Virus record (IMG/VR): IMGVR_UViG_3300033153_002119
Span: 1-27,774 of that record
Reading direction: 5' to 3' (one strand)
Length of the DNA: 27,774 nt
Source of the DNA: a virus
Part shown: in pieces, positions 11,306-23,280 of the stretch
How positions within the stretch are numbered: position 1 is the first letter of the stretch
Layout of the letters: each line of letters begins with the position of its first letter
Notes under the pieces: generated by a model
What the model saw: only the letters and a program-made list of their open reading frames with translations
Databases searched by the model: none
Told to the model about the DNA's origin: nothing
Position numbers and translations under genes: made by a program

Positions 11306-11940
11306 CATCAGTAAAAGAGATATTAAGTAATATCCTATTCTACGGATTAGAATCTTTCGGTAAGTACTACTCCTCTTACCGGGGTTACGTTGTAGATAAT
11401 GATGATCCTGATGGCTTGGGTAAGATCAAGGTTAAGATACCTTCTATTACCAGAGACAAAGTACACCCCTCATGGGCCTACCCTAAAACTCAGATGGGTG
11501 GAAATGATTGGGGTATGCAGATGCTCCCACTCAAAGGGGATATAGTTTGGCTTGAGTTCGAACACGGAGATACCAGATTTCCATTCTGGTCATTTGCTCA
11601 CAGAGCCAATGGAGAAACCCCAGAAGAATTTGTATCACCACAGATCTATGGTTTTAAGTCACCCAAGGGCCAGACTATAATTATTGATGATCGGGATGAT
11701 ATAGAAAAGATTATAATTAACCATGGAGAAAATGAAGGGTTAGTTAAGGTAATCGAACTAACCGAGAAGTTAAATGGTATAGAGGATAAGGTTAATGATT
11801 TCCTTGCCCACTATAGAGTACACCAGGTAGTAGACCCTATCTCAGGTACAGCAGGACCATTATTACCATCACCACCAGCTCCGATTGATTTGGTTAACAC
11901 CCAACAGTCTGAGATTGAAAATGAAGATGTAGAACACTAA
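11302..11940 (+). CDS. Baseplate central spike, gp5-like OB-fold, no lysozyme domain
   Basis: 212 residues. Residues ~26-100 (YRGYVVDNDDPDGLGKIKVK, then HPSWAYPKTQMGG and LPLKGDIVWLEFEHGD) form the gp5/gpV N-terminal OB-fold: G-x-V-x-x-x-x-D-P-x-x-x-G-R/K-V-K-V, P-x-x-G-x-x-V-x-x-x-F-x-x-G-D. Residues ~113-140 (YGFKSPKGQTIIIDD) begin the beta-stranded repeats that normally form a triangular needle. The rest is short and Pro-rich (GPLLPSPPAP), with no lysozyme motif and no His-x-His tip, so tip and muramidase functions must be elsewhere. It sits on the hub and punctures the outer membrane. Confidence 0.8.
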   Translation: MTSVKEILSNILFYGLESFGKYYSSYRGYVVDNDDPDGLGKIKVKIPSITRDKVHPSWAYPKTQMGGNDWGMQMLPLKGDIVWLEFEHGDTRFPFWSFAHRANGETPEEFVSPQIYGFKSPKGQTIIIDDRDDIEKIIINHGENEGLVKVIELTEKLNGIEDKVNDFLAHYRVHQVVDPISGTAGPLLPSPPAPIDLVNTQQSEIENEDVEH

Positions 11941-14900
11941 TGGCACAAACTCAAGCAGAATTTAGAGAGAACATCAGGGTAGCCATGGTGGATAACTCCA
12001 GGTATCCCATCATAGCAGGTCAACCTATGCCACCAGACATGACGTCAGAGATGGAAAATTCCATGGCTCGTCTTGCTAATCCTATATGGCAGATGGTAGC
12101 CTCATGGGCATTGGGGTTAGAAGGTGATGAGTTTCCAGATGAGAATGTAAGATCAGATGAAGCTGACCCAATACCAGGTTACCTTGATGCTAAGGTTGAT
12201 GATGATACTATAAAGGTTAACCTTAGTACTCATAAGATGTATGTGGCCGGTATACCCTTGGCTTCAGATACAGAAATAGGGGGAGTAGTTATAGGAGCAC
12301 AACCATTTCTCTTCATGACAGGAGCTCAGCTTATGCTTAATGCTGAGACTGATCCTTTATTGGTTGGTGGTGATAGTATGGTACCTACTTCTAGGGCAGT
12401 TAAGCTTTATGTAGATTCACTGATTACAGGGAGTGGGGGAGGTGGCGATATGCTTAAGTCCACCTATGATACCGCAGAGAACGGGGTAGTAGATGATGCA
12501 GAGAGATTGGATAATCAACTACCATCTTACTACCTAGACTGGGCTAATTTTACTGGGACTCCTACAACCATTGCTAACTATGGTATCACAGATGCCTACA
12601 CTATAACAGAAGTTGATGCATTCTTTGAGGGTGAAGACCTTGGTAAGAAACAAGTAGACTGGGCTAGGATACTCAACACTCCTGTAATACCTATAATCTC
12701 AAGTGCTGGGGCTTATCGAATAGCCACAGCAGAATCAGTTAGTTCTGTAGTAGGCCATGCCGATCTTACCTGGGATTCCATAACTCTTACCATAGATGGG
12801 ATTACAGATATCTCTGGAAATCTTCAGGTAGATAGTATTACAGAACATACTGGGGCTAATGGGGTAAATGTTTTAACAGCTCTCCATGTAGATACCATCA
12901 CAGAATACACCACAGATAATGGGGTGTTGATTGATACAGCTCTTATCAAGGACAGTATTATTTATCCTAACTACGCTATTGATCCTAACACCTATCTAGA
13001 TGTATCCACTGCCGATGTACTGAGTTTTGCTACTGGGGGTGGCTGGAGATTGTATGTTGCAAACACCAGTGTGCAGGTTAGTACCAATTTTTTACCTGGT
13101 ACTTCTTACAGCCATGATCTTGGTAATGCCACTAGGTATTGGGCTGAGGCATACATGGATATCATTTATCTTAAAAACACAGCAGGTACTACAGCAGGTA
13201 CCATTCTTCAGGATGCCTCAGATGTATTTAGGATCCAACCTGGTAGTGCCCAAGCAGTACAGGACACAGCTTCATTAAATAATTTCTATGAAGTTCAGGA
13301 CAATACTGTAGCAAATGATTTTACCAGGCAATACGGGGATAGGTTTACAGTAACCACTGATGGTGATGTACTGGTACAAATCCAAGGGGATTATACCCAC
13401 CTTACTAATATTGCAGATTCCAGTTCAAGTTATACCATAGATTTTTATAAGGAAAGGGCTACTGGAAAAACAGCTAATACTAATGATATATTTGGTAGGA
13501 TCAATGGAAATTTTTATAATGATAATGTAACTCCAGGGACAGTACAGGGGGCAGTAATCCAGTTCAGGGCTATAACAGTTACTGATGGTGCAGAAGATTC
13601 AGACATGGAATTCTGGACTTTCAAGGGTGGTGCTCAAACCATACAACTAAGACTTGGAACAGGGGTATACGTAAATAATGTTGCTGCAGATGAAACAGAA
13701 CTCTATGTAGTTGCCATTGATAATACCACTGGGTTATTAAGTAAGAGATTAGTATCTGGGTTAGGTAGTGGGTCTGATGGGTTCCTTAGTGCAGTTGATG
13801 CCTCTGATATAACTGCTGTAGACTTTACAATGTCTGGGGCTACCGATATATTAAATGTAGACTTCGGACATAACTTTACTGTCCATGATGATGTAACCTT
13901 AACCAGTTTGGCTACGGATAACATTATGAAATGGGATGGAGCAGCATGGATTAACGTACCAATACCTACATCCGGAACGGGGAATGCCTATTCTAGTATT
14001 ACAGATGGAACCAATACTGCCAATGCATCTGGTAGCGATACTTTCAAGCTTAGAACAGCTAATAACTTGCTTACAATTCTGGTTACAGATAACGATGCAA
14101 CCCACAATGATAATGTTCTCCTCACTATCAATGAGGCTAATATATCCCATGACAATATTGCAGATGTTTCCATCGATGACCACCATGCTAGGGATCATAT
14201 CTTGTCTGGTTCTACCCACACTGCTTCGGGGTTAACTGCAGGCTGGGTAATAGCTGGTGATACAGCAACCACATTTTCCTGGAGGCAATTATTATATAGT
14301 GAGCTGGGTAGTATTCCCTCATCCTTTAATCCAGATACCCATGCCTCTTCTCACGAGATTGGTGGTGGAGATTTGGTGGACCACGATAACCTTACAAATT
14401 TTGCCACTGCGGAACACTTCCTGCAAACAGCAATTACAAATGTATCAACAGCTCTTGCCACTGGTATACTCACAGTAACTACAGGGACAGGAGCTCTAGG
14501 AAGTATTACTGATAGCTCAACCAATTGGGATACTGCTTATTCACATAGCCAAATAGTAACGGGGAATCCCCACGTTATTGGGTACGCTGATATATCTGAT
14601 TTCTCAACAGGGGTATCTACTCACGAAACTTCTCATGCTGATGTCCTAATAGATGGGGACTTCACTTCTGAGGGGTTAATGAGGAGGGGTGCGAGTGCAG
14701 GGGTATACACTGTAATAACAGATGACTCTACTAACTGGGGTACTGCTTATACTCACAGCCAAGTTACTTCCGGGAATCCCCATGCTGTAACCTATGCAGA
14801 ACTGGGGGGTACTCAACCAGCCCCATTAGCTCACGCCTCATCTCATGCTGATGCTGGGGCTGACTCTGTGGATCATGACACATTAACCAATACTCACAAC

Positions 14901-17900
14901 CTAACAACAGATATCAATCATAACACTATCCTTAATAACCATGACCTTACTACGGATATTGATCATGATACCATTACCAATACTGGGGGCAACAAGCATA
15001 TCGATTGGACCAATGCCACTAATGCCCTGGTTACTACCGGGAATATAACTACCTCTGCCGATATTTATCTTGATTCCAATTCGAATACTTCTCATGCAGC
15101 CCGTAGGATATACTGGGGTGATGCTGGAGACTGGGATACTTTCATCATAGAATCTACTGATGATGCTCTTGGGATTACCGTCGGCGGAGCACAAGCCGTA
15201 TATATTAATTCTAAGAGCTTCGGCTTTGTTAGCTCAGGTGCCCTTGCAGCTAACGAGGGTATGTATATCCAGCACACTGAGGACAGCAGTAGTGGTGGTC
15301 AACTGAATTTCATCAAGATAAGGGCTACAACTAATGATGCTGTCATTGGAGACCACTTTGGTAAGATCTCTGGTTGGTTTTATAATGATGCGACACAATT
15401 ATATGAAGGTGCCAGGATAGATATGGTGGTAAGTGATGAGACTGATGGTACTGAGGATGCTCGTATATTATTCTATGCCTCTAATGCTGGTACTCTTAAC
15501 ACTTACCAACTAGAGATAGCCCAGACTTTTGTAAATGTTACAGGTACTCTTCGTTTTGGGGATGCCAATACTACCATCTACGAGGACGGTTCAAGTAACC
15601 TTACATTCCATGATGATGTATCCGGGATACTAACACTTGCCCAGTTATATGGGGGTAGTACTCCCATGGTATACCCAGGTGCAGGGATAGCTCTTTCAAC
15701 GGGTTCTGCTTGGGGTACTTCGATTACAGATAATAGTGCAGATTGGGATACAGCTTTTGGTTGGGGAGATCATGATGGTCTATATGATACTACTGGGACT
15801 GCAGCTGGGTTGATATCTACTCATGAATCTACCTACAACCATACTAACTATAACACAGCCTATTCCCATAGCCAGATAGTAACTGGTAACCCTCATTCCA
15901 TAGGCTATGCCGATATATCTGATTTCAATACAGGGGTAAGTACCTATGAAACTTCTCATACTGGGGTGGTATCTTGGGGTACCGCATCCAGCCAATATAT
16001 AGTATTAGGGTCTACGGCTGGGGCTATAGAATCTAGTAACTTACTTTATTTTAGCACCGGTGCTACTACTGATCTTAACATTAACCATGCTACTGCTGAC
16101 AGTAGGATAAATTGGAGAAGTGCAGGAAACGTATATTTCTATATATCAGCCGATTCTACCGGGGCACATTTAAATTCAGGAGCTCCTATATTATGGATAA
16201 CACCCACTGGGGCTGCTAATCCAAGAATAGCTTTAGGGTCTAATGCTTCTGGAACTGCCTATATAACAATAAAGGATACTGATACCGTAACCCCATATAC
16301 TAATATAATTCAGGTTAATAATGCGGCTTCAGGACTTTCCGTTTTCAATGTACTTGAATCTGGTGGTTTGATGGCCCCTCAATTGGGTAATGATGAAGCA
16401 GAAACTAACCTCTTAGGATGGGATGTTACCACTGGGTTAATAACATATAGATCGGTATCAGGTCTAGGAATAGGTAGTGATCCTATGGTATACCCAGATG
16501 CAGGAATAGCCTTATCTACAGGGTCCGCATGGGGAACAAGTATTACAGATAACAGTTCTACCTGGGATGCCGCACAAGCCGGACATGCCAACCTAACTTC
16601 TTTATCAGCTCTATCATACGTCTCTGCCTCATTTGTAAAGATGACTGCAGCAGGAACATTCGCTTTAGATACCACAGTATATGGAACTGGGGATGTATCC
16701 TGGGGTACAGTAACCAATGAATATCTATTACTTGGTGGACCTTCTGGGGATATAGCTTCTACTTCTAACCTATCTTATAATACAACTAGTGATCGATTTT
16801 ATATAACTGGTGAAACTTCTATATCTGGTCCAATCGGTACAGATGCACATGTCTTTACTGTAAATACTAATGATAGTGTTTATTCTGGAATAAGGGTAGC
16901 ACAAGGTGGGGCTAATACTGGTCCTCATCTGATCTTTACTGTCTCTGATACTACCCAATACCTTAACTTCAGCCCCCATATCCCTGATGGGGCATCAGCC
17001 ATTTCTTATTACTTTAACACAGTAGATGCCCTTACCACTGCTGGTGCAAAGCTGGTCTCCATAGAAAATAATGATGTAGAGAAATTCTTCATTGATAAAG
17101 ATGGTAACGTAGATATCGAGGCCGGCGCAGAATATCGGATTAATGGGGTGGCTATTGGGGTAGGTGCTGGGGATGTATCCTGGGGTACTGAGACTGGAGA
17201 ACAACCAATAGTATATGGGGCTACTGCTGGGGACATTGATTCTACTGCCTCAGACTTTACCTTTAATACAACAGATAAAATCCTAACTGTAGGGGGTACT
17301 GGTACTGGAAATGCCGGAGGCCAATTGGTTATGGAAAATGGTACTACTACATATCTAAGTATATTTTCAGATGTTGCTAATAACGCCAGAATACGAGGTG
17401 GGGTTCAAGATGCTGCTATTTTAATTTATCCCAATGCAGTCCGAGGTCAGATAGGAATAGGGGCTTCCTCTACTACCAATACTTTTCTGATGATCAGGGA
17501 CCCATCTACCTCAACTAATACAACAACATTAGATCTCCTGGATAGTGTTGGAACATCTATGCTAACTATCTATGAGGCTGGTACTGTATATCTACCAACA
17601 CTGGGAGATGACGATACCGAGGATCATGTGGTAGCCATAGATGACTCCACTGGTCTTCTTACTAAGCGATCAGTAGCCAGTATTTCTGGGACTACTATCT
17701 CTTTCGGTGCAGCAGTAGATGAAATACCTTTTACGAATTCAGGTTTAAATGATTTCGATTATGCTACAGATTTTAAGTATAATGGTACTATTCTTTCCGT
17801 ATCGTCTACCGTTAATATAACACAACCAGGTGGAGGAAATCCTTTCGGGTTAGTTAATTCTGCTGGGAATGGAACCAACACTTTTTCTATTAATACTGGT

Positions 17901-20774
17901 GCGGATGGTTTCTTTATCCAATGGCAAGGGGGACACTCATCAAGTACAACTGCTACCCACCACGGGGGTGCTGCTTATTTAAGAGGCGGAAACCAAACTG
18001 GATTAGGTGGTGGTAATGGTGGGGCTGTTTATCTAATAGGTGGAACTTCAAATTCTGGTGATGGTGGAGATATAAACTTATCACCTGGAGTAGCAGGGGA
18101 TATAAACATAGGAAGTACAACAAGTACTGAAAGTGAATACAGGTTAACCGTAGTAAGTAACGTTGCTGATACTGGTCTTTACTTAACATCAAAAGGTAAT
18201 CAAGGAATTTATTTTAATAATAGTAACCATGCTGGTGTTATAAGGTTAGGTGGGTTCCAAGTTACAGGGGATGCAAATGATTGGTTAATGACAAGGTCTA
18301 ATTCAAATATAGATTCCTTAACCATTAATGCAGGTACTGCTGGAGTTTCAGCCGGTTGGGAAGCAGCTGACCTTATACTTAGAGGTGGGGATGGTGCAGC
18401 AGCAGTTGGCTTTGAAGATGGGGGTCATATATATATGTACCCTGGTCAACTATCTTCCGGGGGTGTTGATGGTAGTCTTTACTTTGGTGATGGAACATCT
18501 ATTGGGGGCTTGGCAGCCAGGTCATCAGAAACTAACGTGATATACTATGATACTACTACTGGGTTACTAACCTATGGATCACCAACAGCTAGTGGTTATT
18601 GGACAGATGGTGGAACCTATCTAATTCCTACTACAGCCGGTGACTCTATAAAAACTGATGGGACAGGAGGGATTTATGTCTCCACGGCATACACAACTGG
18701 ATTTACTCCAAGTGGCACTAATGGATCCCAGATGGATCTTTACACTGGGAATGTAAACACTGTATCATTTTATAATGGGTGGACAGGAATGAATGTTCCA
18801 GTGAGGTTAACTCATAGTACTAATGCCACAATGGAGTTTAATACAGGATCAAGTTATGTTGGTGGAATAAGGTCAGGCGATGAAACTATTAGCCCATCTT
18901 CAGATATAGGGATGTGGACAGGAGATGCAACAGGAACAGGAGATAATACAGGAAGCCTATACATCTATACAGGAGCATCTACCTCAGGTACTCGAGGGCA
19001 AACCTATCTTGGTGATGGTTCAATCGGGGGATTACAAGCCAAAGGGGCTGAGACAAATGTAGTTTATTATAATACCACTAGTGGCCTTATAACTTATGGA
19101 ACTGTTTCAGCTGGGACTTCAGTTGACTTTGGTGCTGCTACCTACATTCCCTACATGCAAACTGATGCCTTGAATTTCGATTACTCATCAGCTTTTAAGT
19201 ATGCATCAGGGATATTATATGCTGACGGAGGAATTGCTGTCTCAGCATTATCGGCTGCTGATGGGGCTCTTGTTATGGCATCAGGGGGCGGGGTAGGATT
19301 ACTCTCCACTGACTCTACATTAACTTGGAGTGGGAATACTCTTATCGTTGACGAATCAGCTGCTACTACCTCTGGTGGGACAATAAGATTATCTAACACT
19401 AACACAGCACAGTCAGCCGGGGCAACAGCAGGGGAGGTTGAATTTTTTAAATCTGACGGCTCAACACAAGGGGCTGGAATAGTTAGTTATGTTAAGTCAG
19501 AAGCTTTTGATGCTGGAGGAACTTATAACCTAATTTTTGCAACAGGTCAGGATGTTTATGGAGCAGGTAGTAACGGATTCTTAGTACTGGATTACCTTGG
19601 TAACCTTAAGCTTAACGAGGATGGGGGTACCAACGGACATTTCTTTACTTATAATAGTGCTAATAATATATCTACAGAACAAGGGTATTTCCCATCTTCA
19701 GGTTCATCATACTTCTCAGGAACTACAGATTATAGCGTAGAGGGGTACATGGCTAGGCCATCAGCATATCAGACTATTGATTATACCTTGATATATCAAT
19801 ATGGTGGTTCTTATGGGGGAATGTTTCACCGTCAAGGGACTTCTGCTTCAGATTTAAGGATAGATTATAATTATCTTGGGTGGGGAATTACCACTACTTC
19901 TACTGCCTGGAGAGAATCCTTTAGAGTTACCGATGGCTATGCCCAAATCAAGGGCCTTACTACAGCTTTCCTTTACGTAGATGCAATCTCAGCTGCTTAT
20001 GATACCAATATATTCTTCAGGCAAGTGTCTACTGCTGTTGGGTTGGTAGGGTGGGATGATTCTGCTGCTAAAATGAAGTATCAATATGGTGCTACCTTTG
20101 GTACTTCTGGTTACTTTGCTCATAACGCCACTAACTTTGATATGTATGGGACTACTACAGCTTACCTTACAGTGGATGCTCTTACGGGAATAGCTACACT
20201 GGCTTTACAGGCTGCAAGTAACCAAGATTCTGAACTACGGTTCAGGTATGATGCATCAACTCAGGCTATGATTGGGTTCGATGCCTCTGCTTCTGCAATT
20301 AAAGTCCAACATGGTTCCGCTTTCTCAACTACTCCCGCCATCTTTATAGGCACTTCGGAACACGTATTCATAGGGGGTGTAACTAATGATACCACCTATG
20401 AACTCAGGGTTGCTGGGGATATCTATGCCTCGGGTAATATAGTAGCTTACTCTGATATTAGGAAGAAGGATATACTTGGGGACATAGAACTGGACTGGAT
20501 AAAGTACAAGGATATTAATCCTATACATTATAAATGGAAGGCCGGTCAATTCGATGACTGGAGGGCTGACGAAGAACATTATGGTTTCTCAGCTCAACAA
20601 ATGCTTACCCTATTCCCCCACACTGCTAGGTATGCGGATGAGTTCGATGAGTATAGCTTAAGGCACATGGGTATTACTGCATTGAATACCGTAGCTATCC
20701 AAGATAACAGAACAGAAATAGAAAGGTTACAGGATAGGGTACAAGAATTGGAAGACGAATTATCTAAAAATTAA
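11940..20774 (+). CDS. Giant tail fibre with C-terminal peptidase S74 chaperone
   Basis: 2944 residues. The N-terminal ~170 residues look like a baseplate-attachment domain. Then come phage fibre repeats (WANFTGTPTTIANYGITDAYT at ~198-220), His/Asn-rich repeats (~980-1040), and long beta-helical or pectin-like repeats rich in Gly, Ser, Thr. The C-terminus is a peptidase S74 domain: SDIRKKD at 2838-2844 supplies Ser2838 and Lys2843 (the i+5 Ser-Lys pair known from endosialidases), followed by EHYGFSAQQM and a final heptad-like coiled coil. S74 domains trimerise the fibre, then cleave themselves off just at the Ser, releasing about 107 residues here. No endosialidase or other depolymerase active site was recognised. 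It overlaps the spike gene at its start and probably binds the host. Confidence 0.85.
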   Translation: MAQTQAEFRENIRVAMVDNSRYPIIAGQPMPPDMTSEMENSMARLANPIWQMVASWALGLEGDEFPDENVRSDEADPIPGYLDAKVDDDTIKVNLSTHKMYVAGIPLASDTEIGGVVIGAQPFLFMTGAQLMLNAETDPLLVGGDSMVPTSRAVKLYVDSLITGSGGGGDMLKSTYDTAENGVVDDAERLDNQLPSYYLDWANFTGTPTTIANYGITDAYTITEVDAFFEGEDLGKKQVDWARILNTPVIPIISSAGAYRIATAESVSSVVGHADLTWDSITLTIDGITDISGNLQVDSITEHTGANGVNVLTALHVDTITEYTTDNGVLIDTALIKDSIIYPNYAIDPNTYLDVSTADVLSFATGGGWRLYVANTSVQVSTNFLPGTSYSHDLGNATRYWAEAYMDIIYLKNTAGTTAGTILQDASDVFRIQPGSAQAVQDTASLNNFYEVQDNTVANDFTRQYGDRFTVTTDGDVLVQIQGDYTHLTNIADSSSSYTIDFYKERATGKTANTNDIFGRINGNFYNDNVTPGTVQGAVIQFRAITVTDGAEDSDMEFWTFKGGAQTIQLRLGTGVYVNNVAADETELYVVAIDNTTGLLSKRLVSGLGSGSDGFLSAVDASDITAVDFTMSGATDILNVDFGHNFTVHDDVTLTSLATDNIMKWDGAAWINVPIPTSGTGNAYSSITDGTNTANASGSDTFKLRTANNLLTILVTDNDATHNDNVLLTINEANISHDNIADVSIDDHHARDHILSGSTHTASGLTAGWVIAGDTATTFSWRQLLYSELGSIPSSFNPDTHASSHEIGGGDLVDHDNLTNFATAEHFLQTAITNVSTALATGILTVTTGTGALGSITDSSTNWDTAYSHSQIVTGNPHVIGYADISDFSTGVSTHETSHADVLIDGDFTSEGLMRRGASAGVYTVITDDSTNWGTAYTHSQVTSGNPHAVTYAELGGTQPAPLAHASSHADAGADSVDHDTLTNTHNLTTDINHNTILNNHDLTTDIDHDTITNTGGNKHIDWTNATNALVTTGNITTSADIYLDSNSNTSHAARRIYWGDAGDWDTFIIESTDDALGITVGGAQAVYINSKSFGFVSSGALAANEGMYIQHTEDSSSGGQLNFIKIRATTNDAVIGDHFGKISGWFYNDATQLYEGARIDMVVSDETDGTEDARILFYASNAGTLNTYQLEIAQTFVNVTGTLRFGDANTTIYEDGSSNLTFHDDVSGILTLAQLYGGSTPMVYPGAGIALSTGSAWGTSITDNSADWDTAFGWGDHDGLYDTTGTAAGLISTHESTYNHTNYNTAYSHSQIVTGNPHSIGYADISDFNTGVSTYETSHTGVVSWGTASSQYIVLGSTAGAIESSNLLYFSTGATTDLNINHATADSRINWRSAGNVYFYISADSTGAHLNSGAPILWITPTGAANPRIALGSNASGTAYITIKDTDTVTPYTNIIQVNNAASGLSVFNVLESGGLMAPQLGNDEAETNLLGWDVTTGLITYRSVSGLGIGSDPMVYPDAGIALSTGSAWGTSITDNSSTWDAAQAGHANLTSLSALSYVSASFVKMTAAGTFALDTTVYGTGDVSWGTVTNEYLLLGGPSGDIASTSNLSYNTTSDRFYITGETSISGPIGTDAHVFTVNTNDSVYSGIRVAQGGANTGPHLIFTVSDTTQYLNFSPHIPDGASAISYYFNTVDALTTAGAKLVSIENNDVEKFFIDKDGNVDIEAGAEYRINGVAIGVGAGDVSWGTETGEQPIVYGATAGDIDSTASDFTFNTTDKILTVGGTGTGNAGGQLVMENGTTTYLSIFSDVANNARIRGGVQDAAILIYPNAVRGQIGIGASSTTNTFLMIRDPSTSTNTTTLDLLDSVGTSMLTIYEAGTVYLPTLGDDDTEDHVVAIDDSTGLLTKRSVASISGTTISFGAAVDEIPFTNSGLNDFDYATDFKYNGTILSVSSTVNITQPGGGNPFGLVNSAGNGTNTFSINTGADGFFIQWQGGHSSSTTATHHGGAAYLRGGNQTGLGGGNGGAVYLIGGTSNSGDGGDINLSPGVAGDINIGSTTSTESEYRLTVVSNVADTGLYLTSKGNQGIYFNNSNHAGVIRLGGFQVTGDANDWLMTRSNSNIDSLTINAGTAGVSAGWEAADLILRGGDGAAAVGFEDGGHIYMYPGQLSSGGVDGSLYFGDGTSIGGLAARSSETNVIYYDTTTGLLTYGSPTASGYWTDGGTYLIPTTAGDSIKTDGTGGIYVSTAYTTGFTPSGTNGSQMDLYTGNVNTVSFYNGWTGMNVPVRLTHSTNATMEFNTGSSYVGGIRSGDETISPSSDIGMWTGDATGTGDNTGSLYIYTGASTSGTRGQTYLGDGSIGGLQAKGAETNVVYYNTTSGLITYGTVSAGTSVDFGAATYIPYMQTDALNFDYSSAFKYASGILYADGGIAVSALSAADGALVMASGGGVGLLSTDSTLTWSGNTLIVDESAATTSGGTIRLSNTNTAQSAGATAGEVEFFKSDGSTQGAGIVSYVKSEAFDAGGTYNLIFATGQDVYGAGSNGFLVLDYLGNLKLNEDGGTNGHFFTYNSANNISTEQGYFPSSGSSYFSGTTDYSVEGYMARPSAYQTIDYTLIYQYGGSYGGMFHRQGTSASDLRIDYNYLGWGITTTSTAWRESFRVTDGYAQIKGLTTAFLYVDAISAAYDTNIFFRQVSTAVGLVGWDDSAAKMKYQYGATFGTSGYFAHNATNFDMYGTTTAYLTVDALTGIATLALQAASNQDSELRFRYDASTQAMIGFDASASAIKVQHGSAFSTTPAIFIGTSEHVFIGGVTNDTTYELRVAGDIYASGNIVAYSDIRKKDILGDIELDWIKYKDINPIHYKWKAGQFDDWRADEEHYGFSAQQMLTLFPHTARYADEFDEYSLRHMGITALNTVAIQDNRTEIERLQDRVQELEDELSKN
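12840..19150 (+). repeat. Internally repeated region of the giant fibre
   Basis: Sequence-level repeats lie inside the fibre gene. A 22-base identical block occurs at 16687-16708 and 17167-17188. The protein blocks beginning VYP(G/D)AGIALSTGSAWGTS occur at residues ~1244 and ~1517. The TAYSHSQIVTGNPH block occurs near residues 860 and 1315, with a divergent copy near 930. A module ending in TTGLLTY-like motifs occurs five times (DNA ~13690, ~16390, ~17605, ~18520, ~19045). The copies are diverged, so they are old duplications rather than an assembly loop. Confidence 0.7.
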
Positions 20775-20777
20775 AAC

Positions 20778-21059
20778 ATGGCAACACAGCAATTTACTAT
20801 ACCAGCCCACGATGAAGAATTCATAACTAATCAGATACAATTAGATTTAGATTCTAAAACAGCTACAGTTCATGTGGCTTATAGGTTGGCTGGTTCAGAA
20901 GTTAAGCCTAAGCTTGAGATGAAGCTGGTAGATGTGGTACCATTATTCCAGGCCGAGCTAACACCTGAAGAGATCCAGGCCTTTAAGAAGGGATTAAACC
21001 TTATCGTATCAACTGCCTGGGAAAAACAATTAAATGATATAACTGAAGACGTACTCTAA
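20778..21059 (+). CDS. Small conserved protein, paralogue of the product at 22226-22501
   Basis: 93 residues, starting four bases after the fibre stop and ending in a TAATG overlap. It aligns along its whole length with the 91-residue product at 22226: IPAHDEEFITNQIQLDLDSK versus IPETIEDQFIRQITFDIETK, A-x-V-x-V-x-Y in both, and KGLNLIVSTAW versus KQVMAKAWDVL near the C-terminus. The fold looks like a small beta hairpin plus a C-terminal helix. No known family was recognised. Being the first gene after the fibre, it might be a fibre assembly or attachment factor, an inference only. Confidence 0.6.
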   Translation: MATQQFTIPAHDEEFITNQIQLDLDSKTATVHVAYRLAGSEVKPKLEMKLVDVVPLFQAELTPEEIQAFKKGLNLIVSTAWEKQLNDITEDVL

Positions 21060-21547
21060 TGCCACTATCACCTACTGCTTCAATCTCAGCTAACCAGATC
21101 AATGTTGAGATGGGTTATTCATCTACTGCTCAGATGAGTATTGCCACTGTGTTATCAGCAGTAGGTAAAGCTACTAACCCCGATTCATATAATGAGATGC
21201 GTGGGTTTGATAGGCTTAACTTTGGACAGAACCCTTCACAATGGCAAGAAGGGTGGGTGTATCCTAGTGGAAATGTTAATTACTTAAAGAGTTTTACTAT
21301 TAGTTTTAATGTTACCCTAACCAATTACTCCCGTACCGATTCCATTTCAGGAACATGTTACTGGTGCGTATCAACCTCCTCAAGTTCTATGGTATGCAGG
21401 GATACAGGATCATTCTCATACTCAGCTGGAGTCTACGCAGCGGCTCATGGTGAATCCAACATATATGGTTCTGGCCCTTTCAATGACCCCATGTATATCT
21501 GGTTAAGTTTGGACAATGTAGACTGGATGTATGTCTTTAGCTCGTAA
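21059..21547 (+). CDS. Small beta-rich structural protein with tail-fibre-type N-terminal repeat
   Basis: 162 residues. The first ~50 (ISANQINVEMGYSSTAQMSI, then NPDSYNEMRGFD) match the short motif found in phage receptor-region proteins: I-S-x-x-x-I-N-x-E-x-G-x-x-S-x-x-x-x-S-[IL], ending in M-R-G. The C-terminal ~100 residues are rich in Ser, Tyr, Trp with a CYWCVSTSSSSMVC cluster of three cysteines, suggesting a compact beta domain. A receptor-binding tip or decoration protein is plausible. The start overlaps the upstream stop, and its last 17 bases overlap the sulfotransferase gene. Confidence 0.5.
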   Translation: MPLSPTASISANQINVEMGYSSTAQMSIATVLSAVGKATNPDSYNEMRGFDRLNFGQNPSQWQEGWVYPSGNVNYLKSFTISFNVTLTNYSRTDSISGTCYWCVSTSSSSMVCRDTGSFSYSAGVYAAAHGESNIYGSGPFNDPMYIWLSLDNVDWMYVFSS

Positions 21548-22229
21548 TTATATAATAAAAGAATACACCCACGAGCTACATGCCCGGTGGAGTGAGGAAA
21601 GGGAGGTGAAGATACGAAACAATTCTGTTCTAGCAACATCAAGGTCGGGTCATTTCTTTACTGTGGCTACTATTAAATCATGGATAGGGGATGCTAAAGA
21701 CCCTCTGCTAATGTTTAATAACTATGAGAATCGGTCCCCAGAAAAGGCAAAAGAAAAAGAGATTGCCTTAGCAAGAGAAGGGGTAAAGGTTATAATAGTA
21801 AGGGATCTTTTGAACTGGGCAAGTTCTCTGGGGAAAAGGACAACCATACCACAGGATGTACTCAATGCTTGGTACCAAATCGCCCAAGAATATATAGAAC
21901 CAAAAGTATTACCAAACTTTATACGGGTACATTATGATACCTTTTTTGAGAGTAAGAAGTACAGACAAACAATCTGCAAGCAAGTAGGGGGCAACTATCA
22001 CGAAGAAGGACTAGATGTTGTATCTGGGCCTGGCAAAGGCAGCTCATTTGATGGATTTGAATTCCAAGGTAAGGGTAGTCAGATGAATGTATTGGAGAGA
22101 TATAAATTATTGGATGAAGATACACTAAGCCTATTAAAAAGGAACCCAGGTATCTTAACCTTCTATTTAAAATATTGGAATCCTAACTCAACCAAAACAG
22201 AAATCATAAATAAGTTATTACAATCATGA
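21531..22229 (+). CDS. Sulfotransferase-like protein
   Basis: 232 residues. SVLATSRSGHFFTVATIKSW (residues 32-51) resembles the 5'-phosphosulfate-binding loop of PAPS-dependent sulfotransferases. VKVIIVRDLLNWASSLGKR (85-103) resembles the 3'-phosphate-binding segment (v-R-D-p-x-N-w-x-A-S-r), with Arg91, Asp92, Ser98/99. Further down come VHYDTFFESKKYRQ (133-146) and GKGSSFDGFEF (168-178) followed by MNVLERY, as in sulfotransferase-fold proteins. The product would transfer sulfate from PAPS to an unknown acceptor, perhaps a host surface glycan or a virion component. Start ATG 21531 overlaps the previous gene; the stop TGA overlaps the next ATG. A catalytically inactive relative cannot be excluded. 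Confidence 0.65.
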   Translation: MSLARNYIIKEYTHELHARWSEEREVKIRNNSVLATSRSGHFFTVATIKSWIGDAKDPLLMFNNYENRSPEKAKEKEIALAREGVKVIIVRDLLNWASSLGKRTTIPQDVLNAWYQIAQEYIEPKVLPNFIRVHYDTFFESKKYRQTICKQVGGNYHEEGLDVVSGPGKGSSFDGFEFQGKGSQMNVLERYKLLDEDTLSLLKRNPGILTFYLKYWNPNSTKTEIINKLLQS

Positions 22230-22501
22230 AAATCACAAAGACCATACCTGAAACAATAGAAGACCAATTTATTAGGCAAATCACCTTTGATATTGAGACT
22301 AAGAAAGCCTTTGTCCAAGTAGATTATACAGGGGAAACTCCACACTCGGAGATGATAGAAGTAGACTTCTCAAATCAATTGGGTTTAGCTACAGCTCTTC
22401 AAAAAACCGTTATTAAAAAGTTTTTTAAACAGGTCATGGCAAAGGCTTGGGATGTTTTAGATACTGAAATACCAGACACTGTCTTCGACCCGAATGACTA
22501 G
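22226..22501 (+). CDS. Small conserved protein, paralogue of the product at 20778-21059
   Basis: 91 residues; starts in an ATGA overlap with the sulfotransferase and ends in TAG before a 54-base leader. It is related to the 93-residue product that follows the fibre (shared IPxxxE-x-[FQ]-I-x-x-[IQ], D-[IL]-[DE]-[TS]-K-x-A-x-V-x-V-x-Y, and a C-terminal helix ending AW). Identity is low but co-linear, so an old duplication is likely. Function unknown. The pair brackets the receptor-like protein and the sulfotransferase. Confidence 0.6.
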   Translation: MKITKTIPETIEDQFIRQITFDIETKKAFVQVDYTGETPHSEMIEVDFSNQLGLATALQKTVIKKFFKQVMAKAWDVLDTEIPDTVFDPND

Positions 22502-22555
22502 CATACCTGAATACTATTATTTAACAACACCAGATTATTAATAATTAATAGAGCT
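22502..22555 (+). promoter_or_regulatory. AT-rich leader with a 12-bp palindrome before the baseplate wedge genes
   Basis: 54 bases without a gene. ATTATTAATAAT at 22534-22545 is a perfect palindrome and AGCTATG carries the start of the next gene, the same context as at 5255 and 25725. No Shine-Dalgarno, and no terminator-like stem with a T tract was seen. Confidence 0.3.
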
Positions 22556-22906
22556 ATGAAGAAGATTAAAATTGAGAGAACAAAGATTACCGAGAACAAG
22601 GTTAAGTTCCAAGGGGATACCGAGAAGACCCTTGACTACAAAGACCTGATCGAGATTGCACTGGACGTGGTACCTCAGGGAGGCTTTGCCCCCAAAGATA
22701 TCAGGGACAGGAATCGTGTACAGGATGCTCTTGACAAGGCAACCACTTCTATTGAGTTAGAGGATGCTGATTTCGAAGCACTGGAGAAGATCATGAAGGA
22801 CTCCCGTTGGACTATCAGGGATCCAGAATTGAATGATTTCCTTAACAATTTCGAAGAGGGTATCTACAAAAAAATAGAAGAAAAGAAACCTGCTAAGAAG
22901 AATTAA
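22556..22906 (+). CDS. Small charged protein of unknown function in the baseplate wedge operon
   Basis: 116 residues, highly charged, Lys-rich C-terminus (KIEEKKPAKKN). The pattern DYKDLIEIALDVVPQGGFAP, RVQDALDKATTSIELEDADF and LEKIMKDSRWTIRDPELNDF resembles small phage proteins with a 'leed-x-[DE]-[YF]-x-x-L-x-x-x-x-x-x-x-x-W-x-[IV]-x-d-x-x-i-x-x-F' layout that accompany structural genes. I cannot name the family or function. The product is probably helical and soluble, possibly a morphogenesis factor. The stop overlaps the gp25-like gene by TAATG. Confidence 0.6.
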   Translation: MKKIKIERTKITENKVKFQGDTEKTLDYKDLIEIALDVVPQGGFAPKDIRDRNRVQDALDKATTSIELEDADFEALEKIMKDSRWTIRDPELNDFLNNFEEGIYKKIEEKKPAKKN

Positions 22907-23280
22907 TGGCAACAGTAAGAACCCAAGGTTTGGAATTCCCCCTCGTACTTACCGGTGGTAAACACACCATAGTCGAGGGGGATGACCTTATTAAGTCGTC
23001 CATAAGAATTATACTTTCCTGGCCACTACATACCAGGGAGTACATTGATGAGTTCGGTTCTCGTATTGATGAGGCAATCGAAGATCAAAATGATGGTATA
23101 CTTATGGCTCTAGTAAAGAGGTTCGTAGTGGGGGCCATAGTTAAATGGGAGCAAAGAATAGAACTCCAGAAATTGTCCTTTGAAAGACCTGGACCAGAGA
23201 AGCTGGTGGTAAACATCAATTTCCTTATCAAGGACATTAATATTGAAGATACACTACGGTATACATTCTATACCAACTAA
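22906..23280 (+). CDS. Baseplate wedge protein, GPW/gp25-like
   Basis: 124 residues, the usual gp25 size. The order LEFPLVLTGGKHTIVEGDDL, IRIILSWPLHTREYIDEFGS (the 'l-x-[ST]-x-x-G-e-r-x-x-x-p-x-f-G' segment, residues ~35-50), then VKWEQRIELQKLSF and LVVNINFLIKD matches the GPW/gp25 fold with its lysozyme-like but non-enzymatic core. gp25 forms the wedge core with gpJ/gp6 and nucleates the sheath. It lies 10 bases before the gpJ-like gene, the conserved W-J order of P2. Confidence 0.85.
   Translation: MATVRTQGLEFPLVLTGGKHTIVEGDDLIKSSIRIILSWPLHTREYIDEFGSRIDEAIEDQNDGILMALVKRFVVGAIVKWEQRIELQKLSFERPGPEKLVVNINFLIKDINIEDTLRYTFYTN

What the first reader, a model, noticed from the sequence alone, without database searches (positions are those of the whole stretch)
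21531..22229. Sulfotransferase-like gene inside the fibre-baseplate operon
PAPS-binding-like elements (ATSRSGHFF at 35-43; VRDLLNWASS at 90-99; GSSFDG at 170-175) point to a sulfotransferase fold. It sits between structural genes, tightly overlapped on both sides. A sulfating enzyme could modify fibre glycans, virion proteins or the host surface (superinfection exclusion). No such role is established for tail modules in general.
Basis: partly seen in the sequence, partly recalled or inferred. Interest (0 to 1): 0.7.

Follow-up and report, generated by a model that had tools for sequence, protein, structure and literature searches.

The report
Unregistered phage sulfotransferase in fibre cassette
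A gene squeezed between a virus's tail-fibre and baseplate genes encodes a small enzyme predicted to attach sulfate groups to other molecules; it belongs to a family that no public protein catalogue searched here recognises, shared by environmental phages and bacteria, and probably decorates sugars at a surface.

Summary
No Pfam, PHROG or NCBIfam model and no PDB sequence recognises the protein on its own. Using three plasmid-borne bacterial relatives as a bridge, I found a family with 22 aligned viral and 15 aligned bacterial/archaeal relatives. R38, R91, N95, G168, G170, S171, S172, D174 and R190 are invariant; S99 is kept in 37 of 38 and E66 in 36 of 38. AlphaFold2 models (pLDDT 85) match PAP-bound sulfotransferases. 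Profile comparison with curated sulfotransferases gives E 2e-5; unrelated or reversed controls give 0.19 or worse. Relatives sit beside sulfotransferases, nucleotide-sugar enzymes, glycosyltransferases and, in one virus, an APS kinase gene next door. The sulfotransferase-fold reading is supported. Its place beside the fibre is not a family trait: the two closest relatives lie outside any tail module. In related tail modules gpV and gp25 are adjacent, whereas here an 11-kb cassette (giant fibre, small proteins, sulfotransferase) lies between them. Best explanation: a PAPS-dependent sulfotransferase of a divergent, unregistered family, carried in a fibre cassette and probably sulfating a surface glycan. 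Activity and substrate are inferred, not shown.

The parts
21531..22229 (+). Predicted PAPS-dependent sulfotransferase, 232 aa
   Evidence: ORF; homologue family A2/A5; AF2 model pLDDT 84.8, pTM 0.81; Foldseek; hhalign to curated sulfotransferases
21618..21686 (+). PAPS loop (5'-phosphosulfate site): strand 30-35, loop with R38-S39-G40, helix 41-52
   Evidence: R38 in 38/38, G40 in 37/38; secondary structure of the model; RSG aligned on RSG of curated sulfotransferases. The window protein has Phe at 42 where 34/38 have His
21726..21728 (+). E66, candidate catalytic base at the end of strand 2
   Evidence: Glu in 36/38; role inferred from the Glu base of some sulfotransferases
21801..21827 (+). 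3'-phosphate site R91-xxx-N95-xxx-S99
   Evidence: R91 and N95 in 38/38, S99 in 37/38; same spacing as RxxxDxxxS of PF00685; aligned on the motif of curated sulfotransferases
22038..22055 (+). GSSFDG, family signature; inferred loop over cofactor or substrate
   Evidence: G170, S171, S172 and D174 in 38/38, F173 in 37/38
11940..20774 (+). Giant tail fibre, 2944 aa, with C-terminal S74 chaperone domain; first gene of the inserted cassette
   Evidence: PF13884, E 1.1e-5; absent between gpV and gp25 of collinear relatives
20778..21059 (+). Small protein, 93 aa, paralogue of 22226-22501
   Evidence: Local score 61 versus maximum 51 in 2000 shuffles
21059..21547 (+). 162-aa protein of unknown function directly upstream, overlapping the sulfotransferase by 17 bp; possibly a fibre or tip protein (inferred)
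   Evidence: Weak phrog_26746 match, E 0.0044; no other homologue found
22226..22501 (+). Small protein, 91 aa, paralogue of 20778-21059, overlapping the sulfotransferase by 4 bp
   Evidence: no homologue in phages
11940..22905 (+). Fibre cassette (about 11 kb) between gpV and gp25
   Evidence: gpV and gp25 adjacent or within about 0.5 kb in MT121964, MT121960, KX501134 and MT837143; similar spacing in MT836663 by coordinates
22906..23280 (+). Baseplate wedge gp25-like protein (flank of the cassette)
   Evidence: PF04965 E 1.9e-8, phrog_43

Best explanation
The gene encodes a PAPS-dependent sulfotransferase of a divergent family not yet in Pfam, NCBIfam or PHROGs. Predicted mechanism: R38 in the strand-loop-helix (RSG) holds the 5'-phosphosulfate of PAPS; R91 and S99 (RxxxNxxxS) hold the 3'-phosphate; E66 (or a neighbouring residue) deprotonates the acceptor hydroxyl, and sulfate moves by in-line displacement; GSSFDG closes over cofactor or substrate. 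The most likely acceptor is a carbohydrate hydroxyl, most plausibly on a cell-surface glycan of the infected host. Because the gene travels in a fibre cassette, it probably adjusts the surface chemistry that this fibre meets, for example by masking a receptor against re-adsorption or competing phages. Shown here: sequence family, motifs, predicted fold, cassette anatomy. Inferred: activity, catalytic base, glycan acceptor, biological role.
For: Invariant or near-invariant R38/G40, R91/N95/S99, E66 and GSSFD across phage and bacterial relatives. Confident AF2 models of the window protein and of L024; high-probability PDB matches are sulfotransferases, with E 8e-5 to SULT7A1-PAP for L024. hhalign to curated sulfotransferases E 2e-5, as strong as a known sulfotransferase pair and far above unrelated controls. 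Neighbours of relatives: APS kinase directly adjacent in one virus, Sulfotransfer_2/3, GDP-mannose dehydratases, glycosyltransferases, capsule synthesis. Fibre-cassette anatomy.
Against: No Pfam, PHROG, NCBIfam or PDB sequence match for the single protein. Foldseek for the window protein itself is modest: E 9e-3, TM 0.4-0.5. The window protein differs from its family at position 42 (Phe, usually His) and 47 (Thr, usually Trp) and lacks a segment, so reduced activity is possible. hhalign to the small Sulfotransfer_2 set was not significant, Prob 2%. No glycan or PAPS-making gene is visible in the window, so PAPS must come from the host. Neighbours cannot name the acceptor.
Confidence: 0.55

Rival explanations
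1. It is an active sulfotransferase, but the acceptor is a virion component: the giant fibre, a neighbouring tip protein, or glycans attached to them. Co-expression with the fibre would serve fibre maturation.
For: Position inside the fibre cassette with overlapping genes on both sides; L061/L066 also carry a relative among head and tail genes. Protein-tyrosine sulfotransferases are among the nearest folds.
Against: Closest relatives L047/L048 lie outside tail modules, and relatives cluster with sugar enzymes rather than fibres. Neighbours alone do not distinguish virion glycans from host glycans.
Confidence: 0.22
2. It is a sulfotransferase acting on a small molecule or lipid, or a cargo gene with no link to adsorption; its place beside the fibre is an accident of module exchange.
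For: Placement differs widely between viruses; the closest folds include small-molecule sulfotransferases; L047 carries a PAPS-reductase family gene nearby.
Against: Frequent sugar-nucleotide and glycosyltransferase neighbours in viruses and bacteria.
Confidence: 0.14
3. The protein keeps the fold but is a degenerate, inactive or binding-only relative.
For: Loss of the otherwise common His42 and Trp47 and of an internal segment.
Against: All invariant residues, including R38, R91, S99, E66 and GSSFD, are kept; the frame is intact in both copies of this virus.
Confidence: 0.05
4. It is not a sulfotransferase but another P-loop protein, for example a nucleotide kinase.
For: Guanylate kinases and RecA-like folds appear lower in the Foldseek lists.
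Against: The loop is RSG[HN] without a Walker A lysine; hhalign to APS kinase and GDP-mannose dehydratase is not significant, E 0.19-0.26; R-x7-S matches the sulfotransferase 3'-phosphate motif.
Confidence: 0.04

Closest known systems
Sulfotransfer_3 (PF13469; NodH type, RxG in the PAPS loop, per PMC11625862)
   Same: RSG PAPS loop, R-x7-S 3'-phosphate motif, predicted fold; profile-profile E 2e-5 to a mixed PF13469/PF00685 set
   Different: No member of the family passes the PF13469 or any other Pfam model; invariant N in RxxxNxxxS; GSSFDG signature; short middle segment in the window protein
Sulfotransfer_1 / cytosolic SULTs (PF00685)
   Same: Best structural matches SULT1C3 and SULT7A1 with PAP; 3'-phosphate motif spacing RxxxDxxxS
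   Different: Arg instead of Lys in the PAPS loop; no Pfam match; candidate base Glu rather than His
Protein-tyrosine sulfotransferases TPST1/TPST2
   Same: Arg-type PAPS loop (known to me for TPST), strong fold matches (prob 0.99-1.00); weak direct profile hit E 0.17
   Different: No sequence-level membership; no evidence for tyrosine as acceptor
Phage sulfotransferases of marine phages (OM43 phages, Synechococcus phage S-SRM01; PMC10580990)
   Same: Phage-borne sulfotransferase genes whose role the paper calls unclear
   Different: Those match PF13469; this protein and three relatives tested give no tblastn hit at the limits used (E 0.01 to 1) in 50,697 phage records

Membership tests
PAPS-dependent sulfotransferase superfamily | PAPS loop: strand-loop-helix with catalytic Lys/Arg and Gly | tested here: met
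   E30-35, loop R38-S39-G40, H41-52; R 38/38, G 37/38; definition from PMC11625862
PAPS-dependent sulfotransferase superfamily | 3'-phosphate site: Arg and helix Ser in a strand-turn-helix | tested here: met
   E86-90, R91, H93-101 with S99; R 38/38, S 37/38
PAPS-dependent sulfotransferase superfamily | Central parallel sheet flanked by helices, matching solved sulfotransferases | tested here: met
   Predicted models only; window protein E 9e-3, relative L024 E 8e-5, top matches sulfotransferases
PAPS-dependent sulfotransferase superfamily | His or Glu catalytic base | tested here: inconclusive
   E66 conserved in 36/38 but its place in the pocket was not measured
PAPS-dependent sulfotransferase superfamily | PAPS-dependent sulfate transfer | not testable with these tools
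   Needs an enzyme assay; only context supports it (APS kinase neighbour of a relative)
Pfam Sulfotransfer_1/2/3 (PF00685, PF03567, PF13469) | Score above the curated cut-off of the model | tested here: not met
   No match for the window protein or any of 23 aligned members; hence filed as a separate family within the superfamily
Tail-module (fibre-linked) gene | Kept beside fibre or baseplate in related phages | tested here: not met
   Absent between gpV and gp25 in four collinear records and not found in them by profile (no positive control); nearest relatives L047/L048 outside tail modules

The most novel reading that the evidence does not exclude
The enzyme sulfates the phage's own adhesion apparatus (fibre or tip protein, or a glycan on it), so that a sulfate group becomes part of the receptor-binding surface; to my knowledge phage virion sulfation has not been described.
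Probability: 0.15. Interest if true: 0.85.

Novelty: new variant of a known kind. Interest (0 to 1): 0.5.

Why it matters
What sulfotransferases do in phage genomes is stated to be unclear (PMC10580990). This report defines a family that Pfam, NCBIfam and PHROGs miss, with a diagnostic signature (RSG[NH]H ... RDxxNxxAS ... GxGSSFD), bacterial relatives often near polysaccharide-type genes, and a phage member inside a fibre cassette. If active, it ties a sulfation step to the adsorption apparatus. It gives a short list of residues and a small protein for direct assay, and lets annotators label 'hypothetical' genes in environmental viruses.

Tried and rejected
Direct profile and sequence searches of the single protein (Pfam, PHROGs, NCBIfam, PDB, INPHARED): nothing credible. 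The weak phage hits at E 1-10 (Phabba, ScoobyDoobyDoo, vB_EcoM_APEC, EJP2) were taken as chance; the contexts of the two inspected gave no support. A DNA pattern scan for RSGH...GSSFDG returned 12 stretches, of which only the window's own virus held the motif pair in frame. Alignment A1 misplaced the P-loop because the phage protein lacks the segment before strand 2; later alignments placed it correctly. A Shine-Dalgarno-like AGGGAGG 5 nt before an ATA codon at 21612, about where L020/L021 begin, was considered as the true start; most genes of this virus lack such sites, so it is probably chance. Foreign origin by base composition: GC 0.38 and GC3 0.35 do not stand out. Homologues of the neighbours g21059 and g22226: none found. 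The first curated-sulfotransferase set was read on the wrong strand for some loci and was redone. A repeated viral scan only returned the same 27 loci. A placeholder ticket was sent by mistake.

Full report
OBSERVATION. The ORF at 21531-22229 (+) encodes 232 aa; all three motifs are at the stated residues. It overlaps the upstream gene by 17 bp and the downstream gene by 4 bp. The window is a contractile-tail module: neck, sheath, tube, tape measure, gpV, a 2944-aa S74 fibre, gp25 and baseplate J. The source is a virus record of 27,774 bases, probably a fragment since it holds little beyond tail genes. A second contig, IMGVR 3300033147_000085, is nearly the same virus, with 7 mismatches in 14,244 bp and none in this gene.

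FINDING RELATIVES. The single protein hit nothing credible in Pfam, PHROGs, NCBIfam, PDB or INPHARED phages. tblastn of plasmids gave Gemmatirosa (E 2e-4), Paracoccus (E 1e-3) and, weakly, Jannaschia (E about 1) proteins carrying RSGNH, RDxxNxxAS and GxGSSFD. The Paracoccus copy lies near an annotated sulfotransferase family 2 gene and a mannose-1-phosphate guanylyltransferase. An alignment of these (A1) found 27 viral loci, one of them the virus of the window itself, and 17 loci from bacterial and archaeal genomes: cyanobacteria, Roseobacter, Lutimaribacter, Phycisphaerae, a deltaproteobacterium and a Lokiarchaeota MAG among them. MAG contigs may be misbinned. A tree of 38 proteins puts the window protein with L020 and L021 (support 100/99) and does not separate viruses from cells cleanly (6 label changes; most deeper branches weak).

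FAMILY FEATURES. Over the 38 aligned proteins R38, R91, N95, G168, G170, S171, S172, D174 and R190 are invariant; G40, S99, R145 and F173 are in 37; E66 and Y144 in 36. The review PMC11625862 defines sulfotransferases by a PAPS-loop Lys or Arg with Gly, a Ser on the 3'-phosphate helix (RxxxDxxxS in PF00685) and a His or Glu base. This family has RSG, RxxxNxxxS and a candidate E66. The window protein departs from its family at position 42 (Phe; His in 34) and 47 (Thr; Trp in 34), and, like L020 and L021, lacks a segment between P-loop and strand 2.

FOLD. AF2 with the 23-row alignment gave pLDDT 84.8 and pTM 0.81. Against the PDB the high-probability matches are sulfotransferases (SULT1C3-PAP, Teg12, olefin synthase domain, estrogen sulfotransferase, TPST2), though E is only 9e-3 and TM 0.4-0.5. 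Viral structure matches include several sulfotransferase-annotated proteins. A typical relative, L024, gives pLDDT 85.0 and SULT7A1-PAP at E 8e-5; its first 19 matches are all sulfotransferases. hhalign of the family against 25 PF13469/PF00685 proteins gives E 2e-5 (score 42.6), whereas GDP-mannose dehydratase, APS kinase and reversed alignments score 10.6-16.5; the known pair Sulfotransfer_1/3 versus Sulfotransfer_2 scores 45.7, but the family itself against Sulfotransfer_2 was not significant. That local alignment covers the 3'-phosphate motif and the C-terminal half; the P-loop piece, aligned separately, puts RSG on RSG over 14 columns.

CONTEXT. Among 128 neighbours of viral relatives are GDP-mannose dehydratase/epimerase (5), Sulfotransfer_2 (3), Sulfotransfer_3 (2), glycosyltransferases, methyltransferases and one APS kinase. 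In record G017 the APS kinase (71797-72243) is directly next to the relative (71027-71710), with a weak Sulfotransfer_2 match nearby. GDP-mannose dehydratase genes adjoin the relative or lie within about 6 kb in G005, G009, G019, G021, G022 and G024. L057 and L063 carry tandem copies. Bacterial neighbours include glycosyltransferases, capsule synthesis proteins and Sulfotransfer_3, but also unrelated genes. This points to PAPS-dependent sulfation, most often in glycan pathways. L061/L066 carry the gene among head and tail genes. The nearest relatives do not: L047 is near SSB, a methyltransferase, a PAPS-reductase family gene and terminase, and L048 is surrounded mainly by genes on the other strand.

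CASSETTE. The window's tail module is collinear with MT121964, MT121960, KX501134 and MT837143; there gpV and gp25 are adjacent or within about 0.5 kb, and MT836663 has similar spacing by coordinates. In the window 11 kb (11940-22905) lies between them: fibre, two paralogous small genes (20778-21059 and 22226-22501; score 61 versus shuffle maximum 51), a 162-aa protein, the sulfotransferase and one more small gene. The family profile finds no relative in the four records searched (which had no positive control among them). So the gene is part of a fibre cassette that these relatives lack, not a core tail gene. Whether the cassette was gained here or lost there was not tested.

MECHANISM AND CONFIDENCE. 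My estimates: sulfotransferase fold about 0.93; active PAPS-dependent enzyme about 0.8; carbohydrate acceptor about 0.6; host-surface rather than virion acceptor about 0.4. Everything after the fold is inference.

NOVELTY. Phage sulfotransferases are known, and their role is stated to be unclear (PMC10580990). This is a divergent family outside the Pfam, PHROG and NCBIfam catalogues: a new variant of a known kind. I cannot exclude that it is described in a source not held here.

Noticed in passing
20778-21059 and 22226-22501: Two small genes on either side of g21059 and the sulfotransferase are paralogues (score 61, shuffle maximum 51), so the inner pair is bracketed by a duplicated gene.
   Followed up: partly
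1-27774: Nearly all predicted genes lack a Shine-Dalgarno sequence, as in Bacteroidota and their phages; the closest tail modules are from human faecal phages. Host not determined.
   Followed up: partly
21601-21614: Shine-Dalgarno-like AGGGAGG 5 nt before an ATA codon inside the sulfotransferase ORF, near where the N-termini of L020/L021 align; a possible internal start, probably chance.
   Followed up: partly
L057:6809-8432 and L063:7004-8462: Tandem pairs of family members in two large viruses; record G015 (L063) carries further copies.
   Followed up: no
L018:1969-3513: Paracoccus plasmid protein in which the family domain forms the C-terminal half of a longer protein with an unassigned N-terminal part.
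   Followed up: no
L065 (record G017, 71027-73719): A virus of 177 kb carries APS kinase, a family member and a weak Sulfotransfer_2 match close together, suggesting it may make its own PAPS.
   Followed up: partly
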